From IMG/VR virus record IMGVR_UViG_3300022833_000022, positions 1-42,482 of that record: 42,482 bases of DNA; one strand, given 5' to 3'. The notes under the pieces are model-generated. The model was not told the origin of the DNA and did no database searches. It saw only the letters and a program-made list of their open reading frames with translations. The translations under genes and the position numbers were made by a program. The stretch comes from a virus. This document shows positions 29,208 to 42,482 of the stretch, in pieces. Position 1 is the stretch's first letter. Each line of letters begins with the position of its first letter.

Positions 29208-30134
29208 ATGGTAAATCACTTACTTATGGACCTCGTTGATAATGTTCTAGGAAAAGGTAAAGCTACCTCTGGAGCTAATCAAGCCTACCACTGTCCTTTC
29301 TGCAATCACCGTAAAAATAAACTAGAAGTAAACTTCCAAGAAAACGAAGAAGGTATTAACCATTGGCATTGTTGGGTATGTAACGCAAGAGGAAAGTCTA
29401 TAGCAAGCTTATTTAAAAAAGTAGGTGCTCCTGCTAGTAAGATGCAGGAACTTAAAAGCTACGTAAAGATTTCATTCTACGAAGGTACTAATCAACAAGA
29501 AGAGTTAATAGAACTACCTAAAGAATATAGCTCTTTGATAGACCCCAATACTGCTGACACCTCTACACGACAAGCTCTTAGATACTTAAAAAATAGAAAT
29601 ATAGGTAGTACTGAGATAAAAAGGTATGAAATAGGGTTTTGTGCAACCGGTAAATATAAAGACATGGTAATCATACCTTCCTATACCGAAGAGGGGGTTT
29701 TAAATTACTTCGTAGGACGTAACTTTGGACCTTCAGACTATAAGTACAAGAATCCAAAAGTTAATAAAAACATAATACCTCTAGGATTACATATTAATTG
29801 GAACTCTCCTTTAATAATCTGCGAAGGAATGTTTGACGCTTTAGCAATTAAACGAAACGCAATACCTTTACTAGGTAAAACAATACCAAAAAAATTAATG
29901 CACAAGATTGTAGAATCTAGTGTTAAACAGATTTTTATAGCACTCGACAATGATGCTATCAAACAAGCATTAGAACACTGTCAGACCTTTCTTAACCATG
30001 GGAAGGAGGTGTTCTTAATCGAACTTAACAACGAAGATCCTTCAGAGCTAGGATTTAAAGAATTTACTAAACTACTACACACAAGTACACCGATGACTTT
30101 TAAAACACTAATAGAGAAAAAGTTTCAACTATGA
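29208..30134 (+). CDS. DnaG-type DNA primase (gp61-like), 308 aa
   Basis: A zinc-binding module with CPFC (29-32) and CWVC (55-58) lies at the N-terminus; a Toprim domain follows with Glu206 in LIICEGMFDALAIK and the Asp pair 247/249 in FIALDNDAI. This is the order of DnaG/gp61 primases that lay down RNA primers at the fork; the length is near T4 gp61 (342 aa). The stop overlaps the next start as ATGA, coupling it to a nuclease. No helicase domain is fused. Confidence 0.8.
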   Translation: MVNHLLMDLVDNVLGKGKATSGANQAYHCPFCNHRKNKLEVNFQENEEGINHWHCWVCNARGKSIASLFKKVGAPASKMQELKSYVKISFYEGTNQQEELIELPKEYSSLIDPNTADTSTRQALRYLKNRNIGSTEIKRYEIGFCATGKYKDMVIIPSYTEEGVLNYFVGRNFGPSDYKYKNPKVNKNIIPLGLHINWNSPLIICEGMFDALAIKRNAIPLLGKTIPKKLMHKIVESSVKQIFIALDNDAIKQALEHCQTFLNHGKEVFLIELNNEDPSELGFKEFTKLLHTSTPMTFKTLIEKKFQL

Positions 30135-30925
30135 TTGAGAAAAACAAAGACATTAAAAAAGATGCATTCGTCAAAAGATTAATACATCCAGACTCCACTG
30201 CCCGTCAAATCACTCTAACCGACAGTAGATTTTACCAACGTAACAAGGAAGAATATTATCCCTCTGTAACAACAGTACTTTCGTACTTCCCAAAAGGAAA
30301 GTTCTTCCAAAGCTGGTTAAAAGACGTAGGAGCAAATGCTGACATTATAATGCGTAGAGCGGGTAATGAAGGAACCCAAGTACATGAAGCTATAGAAGCA
30401 TACCTTAAAGGCGAAGAAATTCAATGGCTTGACCAATGGGGTAAGACAAAGTATAGTCTCTTAGTCTGGAAGATGATCCTAAAGTTCAAAGACTTCTGGG
30501 ATACACATAAACCAACACTAGTAGAATCTGAAATACATGTATTCTCAGACGAACTTAAAATAGCTGGAACAGCTGACTTAATACTCGAAATAGACGGAAA
30601 ACTATGGATGGTTGATATTAAAACCTCAAACTACTTACACGATACATACGACCTACAACTCGCCTGTTATACACAAGGGTGGAATGAATGTTTTGAGAGA
30701 CCTATTGAAAAGATGGGTATACTATGGCTCAAAGCTGCAACCCGTGGAGAAAGTAAAAAGAAAGGAGTACTTCAAGGAAAAGGATGGCAATTAAAAGAAG
30801 CTTCTACACCGTTTGAAGAATGTAAGAGGATATTTAAACACCTTTACGAAGTTTATTTAATAAAACAACCCAACTTAAAACCAATAACAGAAGTGCTACC
30901 AACAAGCATTAAGCTAAATCCGTGA
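30131..30925 (+). CDS. RecB/Cas4-like PD-(D/E)XK nuclease, 264 aa
   Basis: Conserved elements in order: SVTTVLSYFP, His85 in GTQVHEAIEAYLKGEE, Asp149 in IAGTADLILE, and Asp162-Ile-Lys164 in WMVDIKTS, followed by LQLACYTQGW, the QxxxY-like motif of RecB nucleases. It should cut or trim DNA with Mg2+. It is translated with the primase, so repair or recombination at replication forks is a reasonable role. No iron-sulphur cysteine set as in Cas4 is visible. Confidence 0.8.
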   Translation: MIEKNKDIKKDAFVKRLIHPDSTARQITLTDSRFYQRNKEEYYPSVTTVLSYFPKGKFFQSWLKDVGANADIIMRRAGNEGTQVHEAIEAYLKGEEIQWLDQWGKTKYSLLVWKMILKFKDFWDTHKPTLVESEIHVFSDELKIAGTADLILEIDGKLWMVDIKTSNYLHDTYDLQLACYTQGWNECFERPIEKMGILWLKAATRGESKKKGVLQGKGWQLKEASTPFEECKRIFKHLYEVYLIKQPNLKPITEVLPTSIKLNP

Positions 30926-37400: not shown

Positions 37401-38540
37401 ATGGATACAATAGATAAAATACTTCTAGAATGGTCCTTCAGATGTGAAAAAGGTTATCCAGATCTTAGTAACGAAGAAGATATTCTAATAATAGAAACAT
37501 TACTAAGTAATGCAGTAGGTGAAGAGTTTAAGCTAAACGAAAGAAAACACCCCTTCGAATACCTTAACTCTACAGCTCAAGAGGTAGGTAAAGAGTTAAT
37601 TAAACAACTTAATCTAGAAGATAGCGAGATAGTTGCTCACTCTAAGAATAGAATTATAATATTCACCGATAGGAAGAGACAAGATATATTTAAGGAACTA
37701 GCTAACTTAGGGTACGAAAAAGGTACCATTAGAGGATCAAGCGGCGGAGGGTTTAGAACACTCGAAGGAGTAGAGATTATACACAAAAATATAACTTCCC
37801 CCGGTAATGCTGGATTGGATAATGAATATATCGTTGTTAGTAAAATTAACGAGTACATTGCAGAGGTAGGAGAACTAACTGTTATAATAAAAGCATTAGG
37901 TAATGGAGTAGAGGTAAAATACGAAGGTATAACCGGTGCTAAGGATGTAGGTAAAGCTACTGGAGATAATAAGAAAGCAGACATATTATTGCTAACCAAA
38001 GGTGCAGACTTACCAATCTCTATAAAAAAAGACGGACAGTTTAGATGGTCCTCTGCAATGAGAACCCACGGCGATGTATTTCATAAAGTTATAGGAGGTG
38101 CTTTTAAAGGCGAACGAGACGATTTGAAATTAATACCGGATGAAGACAATCCACGAGTTCTTAGAATGATGAACCCCAAGAACAACCTACCGTACGGACG
38201 AGTATTCGTCACTAATGTACCCGGTGTAGGACTTAAAGAAATGGCTTTCGGTTCAGACAACTCAAAAATAATTCAAAGAACATTCAGTGATTCAGACTTC
38301 TCTATCGAAGGTAATACTCTAACTATAAAAGCTACTAATTTATACCTAAACGTTGAAGATTTTGAAGATAAAGACCAGCCGATAATACAGTTCGAGAGAA
38401 ACTCATCAAAAGCTACCTCACAAGATCCGGAGAAATATACAGGTAGGGGTATAACAATTAGAACAGTTCCTATATCAGTCATACCTAAACCCGGCAGTAA
38501 AGCAAACACTCTTACAGTAGATTGGAACGATATAAAGTAA
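37401..38540 (+). CDS. Protein with restriction-endonuclease-like motif, 379 aa
   Basis: The central stretch GDNKKADILLLTKGADLPIS then IKKDGQFRW (about 190-218) has the spacing of a PD-(D/E)XK active site (Asp, then a beta strand ending S-I-K), as in some type II restriction enzymes. The N-terminus MDTIDKILLEW contains an L-L-E site similar to the proposed head-targeting peptides. The rest is unassigned. A packaged or packaging-linked nuclease is a hypothesis. Confidence 0.5.
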   Translation: MDTIDKILLEWSFRCEKGYPDLSNEEDILIIETLLSNAVGEEFKLNERKHPFEYLNSTAQEVGKELIKQLNLEDSEIVAHSKNRIIIFTDRKRQDIFKELANLGYEKGTIRGSSGGGFRTLEGVEIIHKNITSPGNAGLDNEYIVVSKINEYIAEVGELTVIIKALGNGVEVKYEGITGAKDVGKATGDNKKADILLLTKGADLPISIKKDGQFRWSSAMRTHGDVFHKVIGGAFKGERDDLKLIPDEDNPRVLRMMNPKNNLPYGRVFVTNVPGVGLKEMAFGSDNSKIIQRTFSDSDFSIEGNTLTIKATNLYLNVEDFEDKDQPIIQFERNSSKATSQDPEKYTGRGITIRTVPISVIPKPGSKANTLTVDWNDIK

Positions 38541-38589: not shown

Positions 38590-41574
38590 ATGAGTCAAGA
38601 ACTAAAACAAGTAATAAGACAGGAATACGTAAAATGTGCTAAAGACCCAGTACATTTCATGAAAAAGTACTGCTATATACAACACCCTCAAAGAGGTAGA
38701 ATACTATTTCACTTATTTCCCTTCCAAGAAACTACATTAAACCACTTCCAAGATAATGACTACTCTATAATACTAAAGTCAAGACAGCTCGGAATATCAA
38801 CTCTAGCAGCAGGGTTTTCACTATGGTTAATGACTTTTCATAAAGATAAGAATATACTTACATTAGCAACAACACAAGCTACTGCTAGAAACCTTGTAAC
38901 TAAAGTACAGTTTATGTACGAGAATCTACCTACCTGGTTACGAGTAGGGTCCGCAGAGAAGAATAAGTTAAGTTTAAGACTAGTTAACGGATCTAAGATA
39001 ACAGCTAAATCCTCTAACGCAGACGCCGCTAGATCGGAAGCAGTATCGTTACTGATAATTGACGAGGCAGCATTTATAGATAATATAGCTGAAACATGGG
39101 CGTCTGCTCAACAGACACTTGCAACAGGTGGAGGAGCTATAGTATTGTCATGTGTAGTAGGAGATACTTATGTAACTACCTCTGAAGGCATTAAGCAGGT
39201 AAAGGATTTTATAACGGAGAAGCAAGAACCCGGCTTTAATACAGTTAAACCTTACCACATACTAGGAAAAGGTAAAATTAGAGAAGGGCATCAATTCTAC
39301 CGAAACGGCACTGTCCCCACCTTGAAGATACATTCTAAAAATGCACAACTAGAAGGTTCAGAAAACCATAAACTATACACCTTCTCCGGTAATACCTACG
39401 GGTGGAATAAACTAGAGACCCTGAAGGTAGGAGACTTTGTAGCAGTGCAGGGGGGGCACCGTATTTGGGGAAATAACGATACTCTAAACTACCAAAATAT
39501 TGCTAAGAATAGAAAAAAATTAAACTTCAACACAGAGGAAATCACCCCGGACCTTAGTTACCTTTTCGGCCTCTACCTAGCAGAGGGCAGTTCTAACGGA
39601 ACAACTACAATAGACATCACCTGCGGGGATGATCAAGATATAGATAGAGAACTTAATAAGTTAGACCTATATTACAGCAGAACCGATGGGAGATTGGCTA
39701 AAAGGCTCTGTTCTACCTCTTTAGTGGATATTTTTAATAAAGTAGGTTTTGAACTAGGCGAACATACAGCGCTAACTAAGTTCCTTCCTAAGAAGATACT
39801 TTCGATGTCGGAGAAGAATATAGCTGCCGTGGTTCAAGGAATGTTTGACGGGGACGGGTGTGCTACTGTAAAAGGATTAGTGACTTATGCAAGTATCTCT
39901 AAAGACCTAGTGGAGGGTTTACGTAGCATACTCTTAAACTTCGGAGTATATAGTAGAGTCTATGTGAGGACAGCACTGCATAGTAACGCATATGTCGCTT
40001 CAAAACGAGAGCAGGGTTGTGAATGGGCCTTCGAATGGAATAAACATAAACACGACTGTTATATTTTAGAGATAACCGGTGAAGGTTTAGAGATTTTTCA
40101 TAAGCACATTGGATTCCGCATAGACAGGAAGCAATTAAATTTAAAGACATCAGTACATAACTATAAAAAACAAACTAGGAAATCCACCTTAGACTTAATA
40201 CCGGCAGGAGATAACCTCATAAAATTGCTATATGACCGCTCAGAACTCTCACAGTACAGTTTTATAAAGGAATCTGAGAAGTCACTTAGCAACATCTTAA
40301 ATAGAACTAGGAGTAGGAAAACTATTCATTGTTCAAGGGCAACCGTAAAGGTCGTTTTTAGTAAATGGAAACATTTATTAAACGAGGAGGAGCTAACTCA
40401 CTGGGACAATATACTAGATGATAGAATACGGTGGAACATTATTAAGGAGATCACAGAAGGGGTTTCTGAGACGTATGACTTTTCTCTACCGGATAACATT
40501 AAAACAGAAGGGGAATGGTGTCATTCTGTAATATACAACGGTATGGTAGGACACCAAACCCCTTTCGGTACAGGTAATTGGTTCCATAAGACCTGGTGTG
40601 CAGCGGAGACAGGAGAAAATGCATTCTTACCTATCAAGTTACCGTGGTTCGTACACCCGGAAAGAGACCAAACCTGGAGAGATTCACAAGATGCTCAATT
40701 AGGAGATCCAAGGTTAGCAGCACAGGAGTGTGATGTTACATTCTCTACCTCTGGAGATACGGTAATATACGGCGACCTTATAGAATTTTATGAAGAGACC
40801 TATAGAAAAGATCCTGTAGAGAGAAGAGGGGTGGATAGAAACCTGTGGATATGGGAACCTGTAGACTATTCCAGAAACTACATGGTAGTAGCAGACGTAG
40901 CTCGAGGAGACGGAAAGGATTTCTCCGCTTTTCATATAATAGATATAGAAACGTGTAGCCAGGTTGGAGAATACAAAGGACAACTCCCCCCTAAAGAGTT
41001 TGCCCACCTATTAGTCGGAATATCGACAGAGTATAACAACGCACTGTTAGTAGTAGAGAATGCAAACATAGGATGGTCTACTATCGAAACAGTACAAGAA
41101 CGAGGTTATACTAATCTATACCATTCTCCAAAGTCTGGTAATGTTACCTCAGAAAGTTACTTCGACCCCCACGGGCTAAATACTAATATGACCCCAGGCT
41201 TTTCCAACACGTTAAAGACAAGGCCTCTTATAATAGCAAAACTACAAGAATCTATTAATGACAAGTCAGCGATAATACATTCAAAGAGAATGCTTGATGA
41301 ACTAAAAGTCTTTATATGGAGAAACAATAGAGCAGAAGCTCAAGGAGGTTATAACGATGATTTAACAATGTCTTGGGCAATAGCGATGTATGTAAGAGAA
41401 TCAGCCTTTAGAATACAGACTGGAAACGCTAACATCGTAAGAAGTGTATGGGAGAACATTACTACCACTAATAATAACCCAGACATAATCTATACTCCTC
41501 AAAGCGCCAACAACCCTACACAGATAGACAACGGTAAAGGAGGGTTCGAAGACATGTCTTGGATCTATAAATGA
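38590..41574 (+). CDS. 17: Terminase large subunit (gp17 type) with intein, 994 aa precursor
   Basis: Extein 1 (1-187) has a Walker A-like SRQLGIST (64-71) and Walker B LLIIDE (154-159); extein 2 (657-994) has nuclease acidic sites in VVADVARGDGKDFSAFHIID, LLVVENANIGW and NDDLTMSWAIAM. Removing residues 188-656 restores AIVLS joined to TPFGTGNWFHK, the ATPase coupling motif (S/T-T-P), and leaves 525 residues, close to the family's length. It drives DNA into the prohead and cuts the concatemer. It precedes the portal gene. Confidence 0.9.
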   Translation: MSQELKQVIRQEYVKCAKDPVHFMKKYCYIQHPQRGRILFHLFPFQETTLNHFQDNDYSIILKSRQLGISTLAAGFSLWLMTFHKDKNILTLATTQATARNLVTKVQFMYENLPTWLRVGSAEKNKLSLRLVNGSKITAKSSNADAARSEAVSLLIIDEAAFIDNIAETWASAQQTLATGGGAIVLSCVVGDTYVTTSEGIKQVKDFITEKQEPGFNTVKPYHILGKGKIREGHQFYRNGTVPTLKIHSKNAQLEGSENHKLYTFSGNTYGWNKLETLKVGDFVAVQGGHRIWGNNDTLNYQNIAKNRKKLNFNTEEITPDLSYLFGLYLAEGSSNGTTTIDITCGDDQDIDRELNKLDLYYSRTDGRLAKRLCSTSLVDIFNKVGFELGEHTALTKFLPKKILSMSEKNIAAVVQGMFDGDGCATVKGLVTYASISKDLVEGLRSILLNFGVYSRVYVRTALHSNAYVASKREQGCEWAFEWNKHKHDCYILEITGEGLEIFHKHIGFRIDRKQLNLKTSVHNYKKQTRKSTLDLIPAGDNLIKLLYDRSELSQYSFIKESEKSLSNILNRTRSRKTIHCSRATVKVVFSKWKHLLNEEELTHWDNILDDRIRWNIIKEITEGVSETYDFSLPDNIKTEGEWCHSVIYNGMVGHQTPFGTGNWFHKTWCAAETGENAFLPIKLPWFVHPERDQTWRDSQDAQLGDPRLAAQECDVTFSTSGDTVIYGDLIEFYEETYRKDPVERRGVDRNLWIWEPVDYSRNYMVVADVARGDGKDFSAFHIIDIETCSQVGEYKGQLPPKEFAHLLVGISTEYNNALLVVENANIGWSTIETVQERGYTNLYHSPKSGNVTSESYFDPHGLNTNMTPGFSNTLKTRPLIIAKLQESINDKSAIIHSKRMLDELKVFIWRNNRAEAQGGYNDDLTMSWAIAMYVRESAFRIQTGNANIVRSVWENITTTNNNPDIIYTPQSANNPTQIDNGKGGFEDMSWIYK
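39151..40557 (+). mobile_element. Intein with LAGLIDADG homing endonuclease in terminase
   Basis: Residues 188-656 (469 aa). The N-terminal splice block begins Cys188 (CVVGDTYVTTSEGI); a His in GSENHKL fits block B; LFGLYLAEG (325-333) and VVQGMFDGDG (414-423) are the paired LAGLIDADG motifs; the C-terminus reads VIYNGMVGHQ before Thr657. The last residue is Gln rather than the usual Asn, a known minority form. The DNA uses more GGG, CTC and AGG codons than the exteins, suggesting recent arrival. Confidence 0.9.
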
Positions 41575-41617: not shown

Positions 41618-42482
41618 ATGGCAGACAAAAGTATATTAAACAGACTCAAAAGATTATTCTCCACAGATGTTATCATTAGAAATGTTGGAGGAGATCAGCT
41701 TAAAATAGCAGACGTTAACCAGATCCAGATGGCTGGTAATCTTGAAAATAACTCATTTCAAGATAAGTACTCAAGTATACACTCTACTAGCCCTTCATCA
41801 ATGTACGGTAATCAACAAGCGTATAACTACCAAACATTAAGAACACAACTATACTCAGAGTACGATATCATGGACACAGACGCTATAATAGCATCTACCT
41901 TAGATATAATATCTGAAGAAGCTACCTTAAAAAACGACCTAGGAGAAGTATTACATATAAAATCAGCAGATGAGAATATACAAAAAATACTTTACAATCT
42001 ATTTTACGATGTACTAAACATAGAATTTAACTTAGCCTGGTGGATAAGAAACGCATGTAAATATGGAGACTTCTTCCTAAAATTAGAAATCTCTGATAAG
42101 TACGGAGTATATAACGTAATTCCTTTCACAGCATTTCATATAGAGAGACAAGACGGTTACGATAAAGAACACCCAATGTCTACTAGATTTAGGTATAATG
42201 AAGGAGGACTATCAGGAGAAAGTTACGGATACTATAGCACTCCAAACTCTAATGATACGAAAGCAGTATACTTCGATAACTACGAAATGGCCCACTTTAG
42301 GTTATTAACAGACGTTAACTACCTACCGTACGGTCGATCATACTTAGAACCTGCTAGGAAATTATTTAAACAATATACTATGATGGAAGACGCAATGTTA
42401 GTACATAGAATTGTTAGAGCTCCTGAAAAAAGAATCTTCTATATGAATGTAGGAGGTATTGCCCCAGCTGAAGTTGAGAATT
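41618..42482 (+). CDS. 20: Portal protein gp20 type (3' partial), 288 residues visible
   Basis: Begins MADKSILNRLKRLFSTDVII and runs off the window. YSEYDIMDTDAIIASTLDI then ISEEATLKNDLGEVL, then LAWWIRNACKYGDFFLKL, and a YLPYGRSYLEPARKLFKQYT block are conserved gp20 features. The dodecameric portal sits at the head vertex, is the docking site of the terminase and joins head to tail. It follows TerL by 43 nt under its own late promoter, the usual 17-20 neighbourhood. Confidence 0.85.
   Translation, partial: MADKSILNRLKRLFSTDVIIRNVGGDQLKIADVNQIQMAGNLENNSFQDKYSSIHSTSPSSMYGNQQAYNYQTLRTQLYSEYDIMDTDAIIASTLDIISEEATLKNDLGEVLHIKSADENIQKILYNLFYDVLNIEFNLAWWIRNACKYGDFFLKLEISDKYGVYNVIPFTAFHIERQDGYDKEHPMSTRFRYNEGGLSGESYGYYSTPNSNDTKAVYFDNYEMAHFRLLTDVNYLPYGRSYLEPARKLFKQYTMMEDAMLVHRIVRAPEKRIFYMNVGGIAPAEVEN

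What the first reader, a model, noticed from the sequence alone, without database searches (positions are those of the whole stretch)
39151..40557. Intein placed exactly in the ATPase coupling motif of the terminase
The intein separates S187 from T657-P-F-G, the catalytic coupling (motif III) site of the packaging ATPase. The enzyme should be inactive until splicing, so packaging could be timed by splicing. The C-terminal residue is Gln, not Asn, and both LAGLIDADG motifs look intact.
Basis: partly seen in the sequence, partly recalled or inferred. Interest (0 to 1): 0.6.

Follow-up and report, generated by a model that had tools for sequence, protein, structure and literature searches.

The report
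Gln-ending intein in phage packaging motor
A self-excising protein insert sits at a key motif of a phage DNA-packaging motor; it belongs to a group of such inserts, found in many uncultured T4-like phages, that mostly end in glutamine instead of the usual asparagine and so should cut themselves out by a less common chemical step.

Summary
ORF 38590-41574 (+, 994 aa) is a T4 gp17-type large terminase with a 469-aa intein at 39151-40557 (C188-Q656) between S187 and T657. T657 aligns with gp17 T287 of the ATPase coupling motif. Of 80 close relatives, 77 have an uninterrupted S|T site, 2 carry this intein, 1 is cut off. The class 1 splicing residues are present, with Gln in last place, and both LAGLIDADG acids are intact. 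In a divergent phage, 370 nt of shared intein differ at 2 positions while the sequence after it differs by about 15%: recent homing. The Gln is not a one-off. Pattern scans of IMG/VR gave 111 relatives at this site, 104 ending in Gln. They form a supported clade with some Asn members inside and Asn-ended inteins outside, a lengthened block F and Gly at G:5. The site is known from mycobacteriophages and Mic1; Gln-ended inteins are known from archaeal Pol II and CIV RNR. I found no report of this clade. Nothing here supports splicing-timed packaging; a selfish homing element is the simpler reading. Splicing itself is untested.

The parts
38590..39150 (+). N-extein of TerL (residues 1-187; Walker A SRQLGIS residues 64-70; Walker B D158/E159)
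   Evidence: gp17 match 10-183 in 3ezk/3cpe; positions
39151..40557 (+). Intein, 469 aa, Cys1 to Gln469
   Evidence: intein_Nterm and LAGLIDADG_3; empty sites; family HMM; AF2 model; Foldseek
39151..39189 (+). Block A CVVGDTYVTTSEG with Cys1
   Evidence: Cys1 in 64 of 64 full family representatives
39367..39369 (+). Block B His (H73 of the intein)
   Evidence: His in 64 of 64
39562..39588 (+). First LAGLIDADG motif LFGLYLAEG, acid E145
   Evidence: in the family E 49, D 6 of 64
39832..39858 (+). Second LAGLIDADG motif VQGMFDGDG, acid D235
   Evidence: D in 52 of 64
40471..40557 (+). Blocks F and G: TYDFSLP...EWCHSVIYNGMVGHQ, with lengthened block F, Gly at G:5 and Gln at G:7
40558..41571 (+). 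C-extein of TerL (T657 +1 residue; rest of ATPase and nuclease domain)
   Evidence: gp17 match 657-935; against L086 dN 0.047, dS 1.30
41618..42482 (+). Portal protein gene (runs off the contig), the next gene
   Evidence: phrog_213 portal, E 6e-25

Best explanation
This is a full-length class 1 homing intein in the large terminase of an uncultured T4-like phage whose nearest cultured relatives are the Flavobacterium phages immuto. It removes itself by Cys1 N-S acyl shift, transfer to Thr+1, cyclisation of the terminal Gln (glutarimide) and O-N shift, restoring IVLS-TPFG and an active packaging ATPase. Its LAGLIDADG nuclease cuts intein-free terminase genes at the conserved coupling-motif DNA, so that the element spreads between co-infecting phages. 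It belongs to a clade of inteins seen only at this site, in T4-like terminases, in which Gln probably replaced Asn once and has mostly been kept. Shown here: anatomy, site, empty alleles, recent transfer, clade-wide Gln, predicted fold. Inferred: splicing, Gln chemistry, nuclease activity.
For: Exact insertion versus 77 empty alleles. C1, block B His, F:4 Asp, F:13 His, penultimate His and +1 Thr are all present. Gln recurs in 104 of 111 family members, with +1 Thr in 111 of 111. Combined tree of 91: a 69-row clade (60 Gln, 9 Asn; SH-aLRT 97) with the window as its first branch; the rows outside are Asn except L127. Block F spacing 12-16 in 64 of 65 Gln representatives against 7 in three canonical Asn members. 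Homing: 2 differences in 370 nt of shared intein against about 15% from 40569 on; L194 and L150 have 91% identical exteins but 48% identical inteins. Gln-ended inteins are known to splice (review PMC4031507, passages read).
Against: No splicing or cleavage was measured. L086 begins inside the intein, so only its 3' boundary could be examined. The record is a 42-kb fragment, so a second intact terminase elsewhere cannot be excluded. The family HMM was trained mostly on Gln members, and the two main patterns fixed parts of block G; of 12 members found outside those patterns, 7 end in Gln and 5 in Asn. The single origin of Gln rests on a quick tree with 29 open forks and 7 inferred changes.
Confidence: 0.82

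Rival explanations
1. Regulatory intein: splicing is slow or conditional (Gln cyclisation, cold, redox through the conserved Cys next to the F:13 His) and delays packaging until late infection.
For: Insertion in the coupling motif; Gln slows the Pab and Mma Pol II inteins; residue 457 of the intein is Cys in 46 of 64.
Against: Sporadic presence (2 of 79 informative close relatives), recent horizontal transfer, residue 457 not Cys in 18 of 64, CIV RNR splices better with Gln than with Asn. No condition dependence was tested.
Confidence: 0.1
2. Splicing-impaired or decaying intein: Gln marks loss of function and the phage depends on leaky splicing or another terminase.
For: Gln is uncommon in inteins; 14 of 64 family members have lost a nuclease acid.
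Against: Gln is kept across inteins only 25-40% identical to this one, together with the other splicing residues; an essential gene carries it in an open frame in separate records.
Confidence: 0.06
3. The Gln is actively maintained as an improved chemistry: the lengthened block F and Gly at G:5 rebuilt the active site so that Gln is as fast as or cleaner than Asn. (This is compatible with the best explanation and adds a reason for the Gln.)
For: Gln, block F spacing 12-16 and Gly at G:5 go together (64 of 65 and 63 of 65 Gln representatives); precedent CIV RNR.
Against: Four Asn members inside the clade keep the same block F, so Asn is tolerated; L127 has Gln with canonical spacing.
Confidence: 0.35

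Closest known systems
Mycobacteriophage TerL6-f inteins (Phlyer/Athena; Kelley et al. 2016, PMC5050341)
   Same: Terminase intein in the coupling (C-) motif: MILIQ|C...HN|TRWHPED; Gadjet has the empty site
   Different: 254-aa intein ending in Asn, in a different terminase family
Microcystis phage Mic1 TerL large intein (PMC7156551)
   Same: Same site, LLTG|CVAP...SHN|TPKG; +1 Thr; 17 more such loci in IMG/VR
   Different: Ends in Asn, canonical block F, LAGLIDADG acids lost; about 24% identical
Gln-ended inteins of archaeal Pol II and CIV ribonucleotide reductase (review PMC4031507)
   Same: C-terminal Gln in place of Asn
   Different: Other host proteins and sites; shared ancestry not tested
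AceL-TerL / GOS-TerL split inteins
   Same: Phage terminase inteins by name
   Different: Split, and +1 residue Cys (table passage in PMC11766414), so another site
RaK2 and K64-1 terminase inteins
   Same: T4-like jumbo-phage terminase with Hint and LAGLIDADG (PMC5259590 passage)
   Different: At Walker A (QMGK|...HN|TT), ending in Asn

Membership tests
Class 1 intein | Cys/Ser/Thr at position 1 and at +1 | tested here: met
   C188 and T657
Class 1 intein | Block B His, F:4 Asp, F:13 His, penultimate His | tested here: met
   H73, D443, H458, H468 present; the usual block B Thr is a Ser here (EGSENH)
Class 1 intein | C-terminal Asn (Gln, Asp and Glu accepted as variants) | tested here: met
   Variant Gln; accepted variant per PMC4031507
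Class 1 intein | Excises and ligates the exteins | not testable with these tools
   Needs expression
LAGLIDADG homing intein | Two motifs with catalytic acids | tested here: met
   E145 and D235; Foldseek top hits are full homing inteins
LAGLIDADG homing intein | Horizontal spread into other alleles | tested here: met
   3' boundary only: 370 nt with 2 differences, then about 15%
LAGLIDADG homing intein | Cuts the empty site | not testable with these tools
   Needs an assay
Terminase coupling-motif inteins (TerL6-f type site) | Insertion directly before the conserved Thr of motif III | tested here: met
   T657 on gp17 T287; Phlyer and Mic1 junctions
Gln-ended TerL clade (defined here) | Same site, Gln at G:7, lengthened block F, Gly at G:5, tree placement | tested here: met
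   the clade has SH-aLRT 97, the fork just inside the window's branch 86
AceL-TerL / GOS-TerL split inteins | Split intein with +1 Cys | tested here: not met
   Continuous, +1 Thr; literature trait

The most novel reading that the evidence does not exclude
A large clade of T4-like phage inteins has made glutamine its standard splicing residue: a lengthened block F and Gly at G:5 form an active site tuned for glutarimide formation, so that Gln is a stable, optimised solution rather than a damaged Asn, with occasional returns to Asn providing natural test pairs.
Probability: 0.35. Interest if true: 0.65.

Novelty: new variant of a known kind. Interest (0 to 1): 0.5.

Why it matters
Inteins lacking the terminal Asn have been described as variants at different stages of regaining activity after losing a catalytic residue (PMC4031507, passages). 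A clade where Gln is the rule, at one site, with natural Asn members beside it, gives direct comparisons of Gln and Asn chemistry and a large new set of inteins for protein engineering. The nearly identical intein in two terminases about 15% apart in DNA is a clean snapshot of recent homing between uncultured phages.

Tried and rejected
Composition as evidence of foreign origin: intein GC 0.394 against 0.397 for the TerL exteins, no contrast; GC3 0.388 against 0.331 is only mildly higher. PDB sequence search with the intein gave two irrelevant hits at E 0.14. phrog_17415 was not found in RaK2 or K64-1, so its source phage stays unknown. The one genome-contig scan gave 2 loci, one real (L260, a MAG) and one chance match (L259). 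The automatic alignment of Phlyer to the others was wrong around motif III, so that site is placed by its own junction, the empty Gadjet allele and the paper. Extein identities are unreliable where a second intein lies within 100 residues upstream; only the pair L194/L150 is cited. dS 1.30 is near saturation, and that divergence may predate the insertion, so it says only that both terminases are kept functional. Rows dropped: four long-branch Gln rows (L161, L173, L177, L216) from the combined tree, and these four plus L147, L169, L176, L180 and L183 from the alignment used for the structure; ORFs under 60 aa from the listing; 26 of 137 pattern stretches were not accepted as family members.

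Full report
Observation. The window's ORF 38590-41574 (+) is 994 aa. Its ends match T4 gp17 in two blocks, query 10-183 and 657-935 of 3ezk (E 1e-33), so residues 188-656 are the extra part. D158/E159 fall on chain 255/256 and T657 on chain 287, the expected gp17 numbering (that gp17 T285-T287 is the coupling motif is recalled). The extra part starts with Cys after Ser187 and ends His-Gln before Thr657; codon CAA at 40555-40557. NCBIfam intein_Nterm and Pfam LAGLIDADG_3 both pass their cut-offs.

Empty alleles. A scan of IMG/VR with the C-extein found 516 relatives, of which the best 80 were returned. Of these 80, 77 read ...LS|TP(Y/N/C)G without a break, 2 carry this intein (contigs 3300022822_000076 and 3300007523_000546) and 1 begins after the site. 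The intein therefore sits without loss or duplication between two adjacent codons of a conserved motif. The nearest cultured relatives are the Flavobacterium phages immuto (54% over the C-extein, 74% over the N-extein), which are empty.

Recent transfer. L087 is the same phage (99.96% over 10.7 kb). L086 is a different one: 370 nt of shared intein differ at 2 positions; the first difference after the intein is at 40569, 12 nt into the C-extein, and from there about 15% of positions differ. At 15% about 56 differences would be expected in 370 nt. The C-exteins differ with dN 0.047 and dS 1.30. This is the signature of a recent move of the intein between two long-diverged terminases with almost no co-converted flank on the 3' side. 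L086 starts inside the intein, so the 5' side cannot be seen.

The Gln is a clade trait. A pattern for N-G-x-x-x-H-[N/Q/K/H]-T-P-[N/Y/H/D]-G gave 102 stretches in IMG/VR and, when translated, many terminases ending ...W-C-H-S-V-I-Y-N-G-x-x-G-H-Q|T-P-N-G. A second pattern on the W-x-H-S...Y-N-G signature, which leaves the exteins free, gave 100 stretches. Pooled with L086 and L087, 137 match positions were examined. An HMM from 46 representatives accepted 111: last residue Gln 104, Asn 7; penultimate His 111; +1 Thr 111; +2 Pro 110. Of the 88 with a visible N-junction, Cys1 is 88 of 88 and -1 Ser 87 of 88. At under 90% identity over the last 110 residues there are 72 representatives (65 Gln, 7 Asn); 64 have a full intein (57 Gln, 7 Asn). 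Of the 102 positions that match the second pattern, 101 are family members and all are at this site, so the family is tied to it. Bias: both patterns fix parts of block G, although they treat N and Q alike. A third scan, by motif patterns of the family alignment including a LAGLIDADG pattern, returned 80 loci; 51 score at least 380 bits with the family HMM and have a readable end: 46 Gln, 5 Asn, and 12 of them were new, 7 Gln and 5 Asn. The Gln share is thus high but lower than the first patterns suggest. That scan also shows odd ends: Phe-Gln in three loci, Ser-Asn in three.

Anatomy of the family. In the 64 full representatives C1, H73, D443 and H468 never vary, nor do G13, G53, N263, G265, N463 and G464. 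Both LAGLIDADG positions are acidic in 50 of 64, including the window. The distance from the F:4 Asp to the F:13 His is 12-16 in 64 of 65 Gln representatives and in four Asn members, but 7 in three Asn members of ordinary shape and in one Gln member, L127; G:5 is Gly in 63 of 65 Gln representatives. The window intein is 25-40% identical to the others and, at 469 aa, the longest in the set (392-469).

Tree. With the last residue removed, 91 inteins (61 Gln at this site, 21 Asn at this site, 9 Asn elsewhere) give a clade of 69 (60 Gln, 9 Asn) with SH-aLRT 97; the window is its first branch. Outside it lie a 10-row Asn clade at the same site (99), Mic1, and inteins of other sites, all Asn, plus L127 (Gln) on a long branch. 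Seven Gln/Asn changes are needed. A reading with one early Asn-to-Gln change and later returns to Asn fits, but 29 of 88 inner branches are open. A tree of the 64 family members alone needs five changes.

Mobility within the family. L194 (Asn) and L150 (Gln) have exteins 91% identical and inteins 48% identical, which suggests replacement of one intein by another at the same site.

Structure. AlphaFold2 with 54 relatives gives pLDDT 90.9 and pTM 0.91. Foldseek's best hits are TliVMA (E 2.3e-22, TM 0.66/0.71), PI-PfuI and, lower, PI-SceI: an ordinary Hint fold with an inserted LAGLIDADG nuclease.

What is known. Kelley et al. 2016 (PMC5050341, passages read) report terminase inteins in the ATPase domain, including TerL6-f in a putative coupling motif. 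I confirmed the junction in Phlyer (MILIQ|C...HN|TRWHPED) and the empty site in Gadjet. Mic1 (PMC7156551, passages read) has an Asn-ended intein at the equivalent site, and 17 IMG/VR loci resemble it; its authors also proposed splicing control of packaging. The review PMC4031507 (passages read) says Gln-ended inteins splice: slowly in Pab and Mma Pol II, better than Asn in CIV RNR. AceL-TerL and GOS-TerL have +1 Cys (PMC11766414 passages), hence another site; RaK2 and K64-1 have Walker A inteins. Two family members searched against 50,697 phage records found no relative at this site except Mic1 among the rows listed: all 3 rows and the best 20 of 54. Nine full-text searches listed no paper on a Gln-ended terminase clade; the library lacks most subscription journals. 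Other papers looked at by passage only (one search's PMC7468147 among them) did not describe it.

Mechanism. Inferred: class 1 splicing with Gln cyclisation, homing by the LAGLIDADG nuclease. The coupling motif is a good target because its protein sequence is constrained and an imprecise loss would damage an essential gene. Regulation of packaging by splicing is possible but nothing here favours it over a selfish element.

Verdict. A real intein, correctly read; the site and the Gln each have precedents, but their combination as a clade-wide trait in T4-like phages appears undescribed. New variant of a known kind, interest 0.5.

Noticed in passing
L146 and L166 (ORF 1890 aa), L143, L153, L211: Terminase genes with two or three inteins: one after the Walker B region (ALTALG|C or TLS|C), one at motif III, and in L146 and L166 a weak third match further on.
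   Followed up: partly
L284, L298, L299; L293, L305, L309: Family members ending Phe-Gln and Ser-Asn instead of His-Gln: loss of the penultimate His in two ways.
   Followed up: no
L127: A Gln-ended intein with the ordinary block F spacing of 7, possibly an intermediate or an independent Gln.
   Followed up: no
L124, L125 (RaK2, K64-1): Walker A terminase inteins that appear to start with Ala or Leu after QMGK, without a Cys at position 1.
   Followed up: no
L093-L109: 17 Mic1-like terminases carry an intein at motif III; in the four read in full (L093, L094, L098, L108) the LAGLIDADG acids are lost, as in Mic1.
   Followed up: partly
L086 1-6024: The contig starts inside the intein, possibly because near-identical inteins in different phages break the assembly.
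   Followed up: no
window 37401-38540: Gene before terL matches phrog_12709, unknown function.
   Followed up: no
window 29208-30925: A primase-like and an exonuclease-like gene lie upstream of terL in a region that also holds baseplate genes further up.
   Followed up: no
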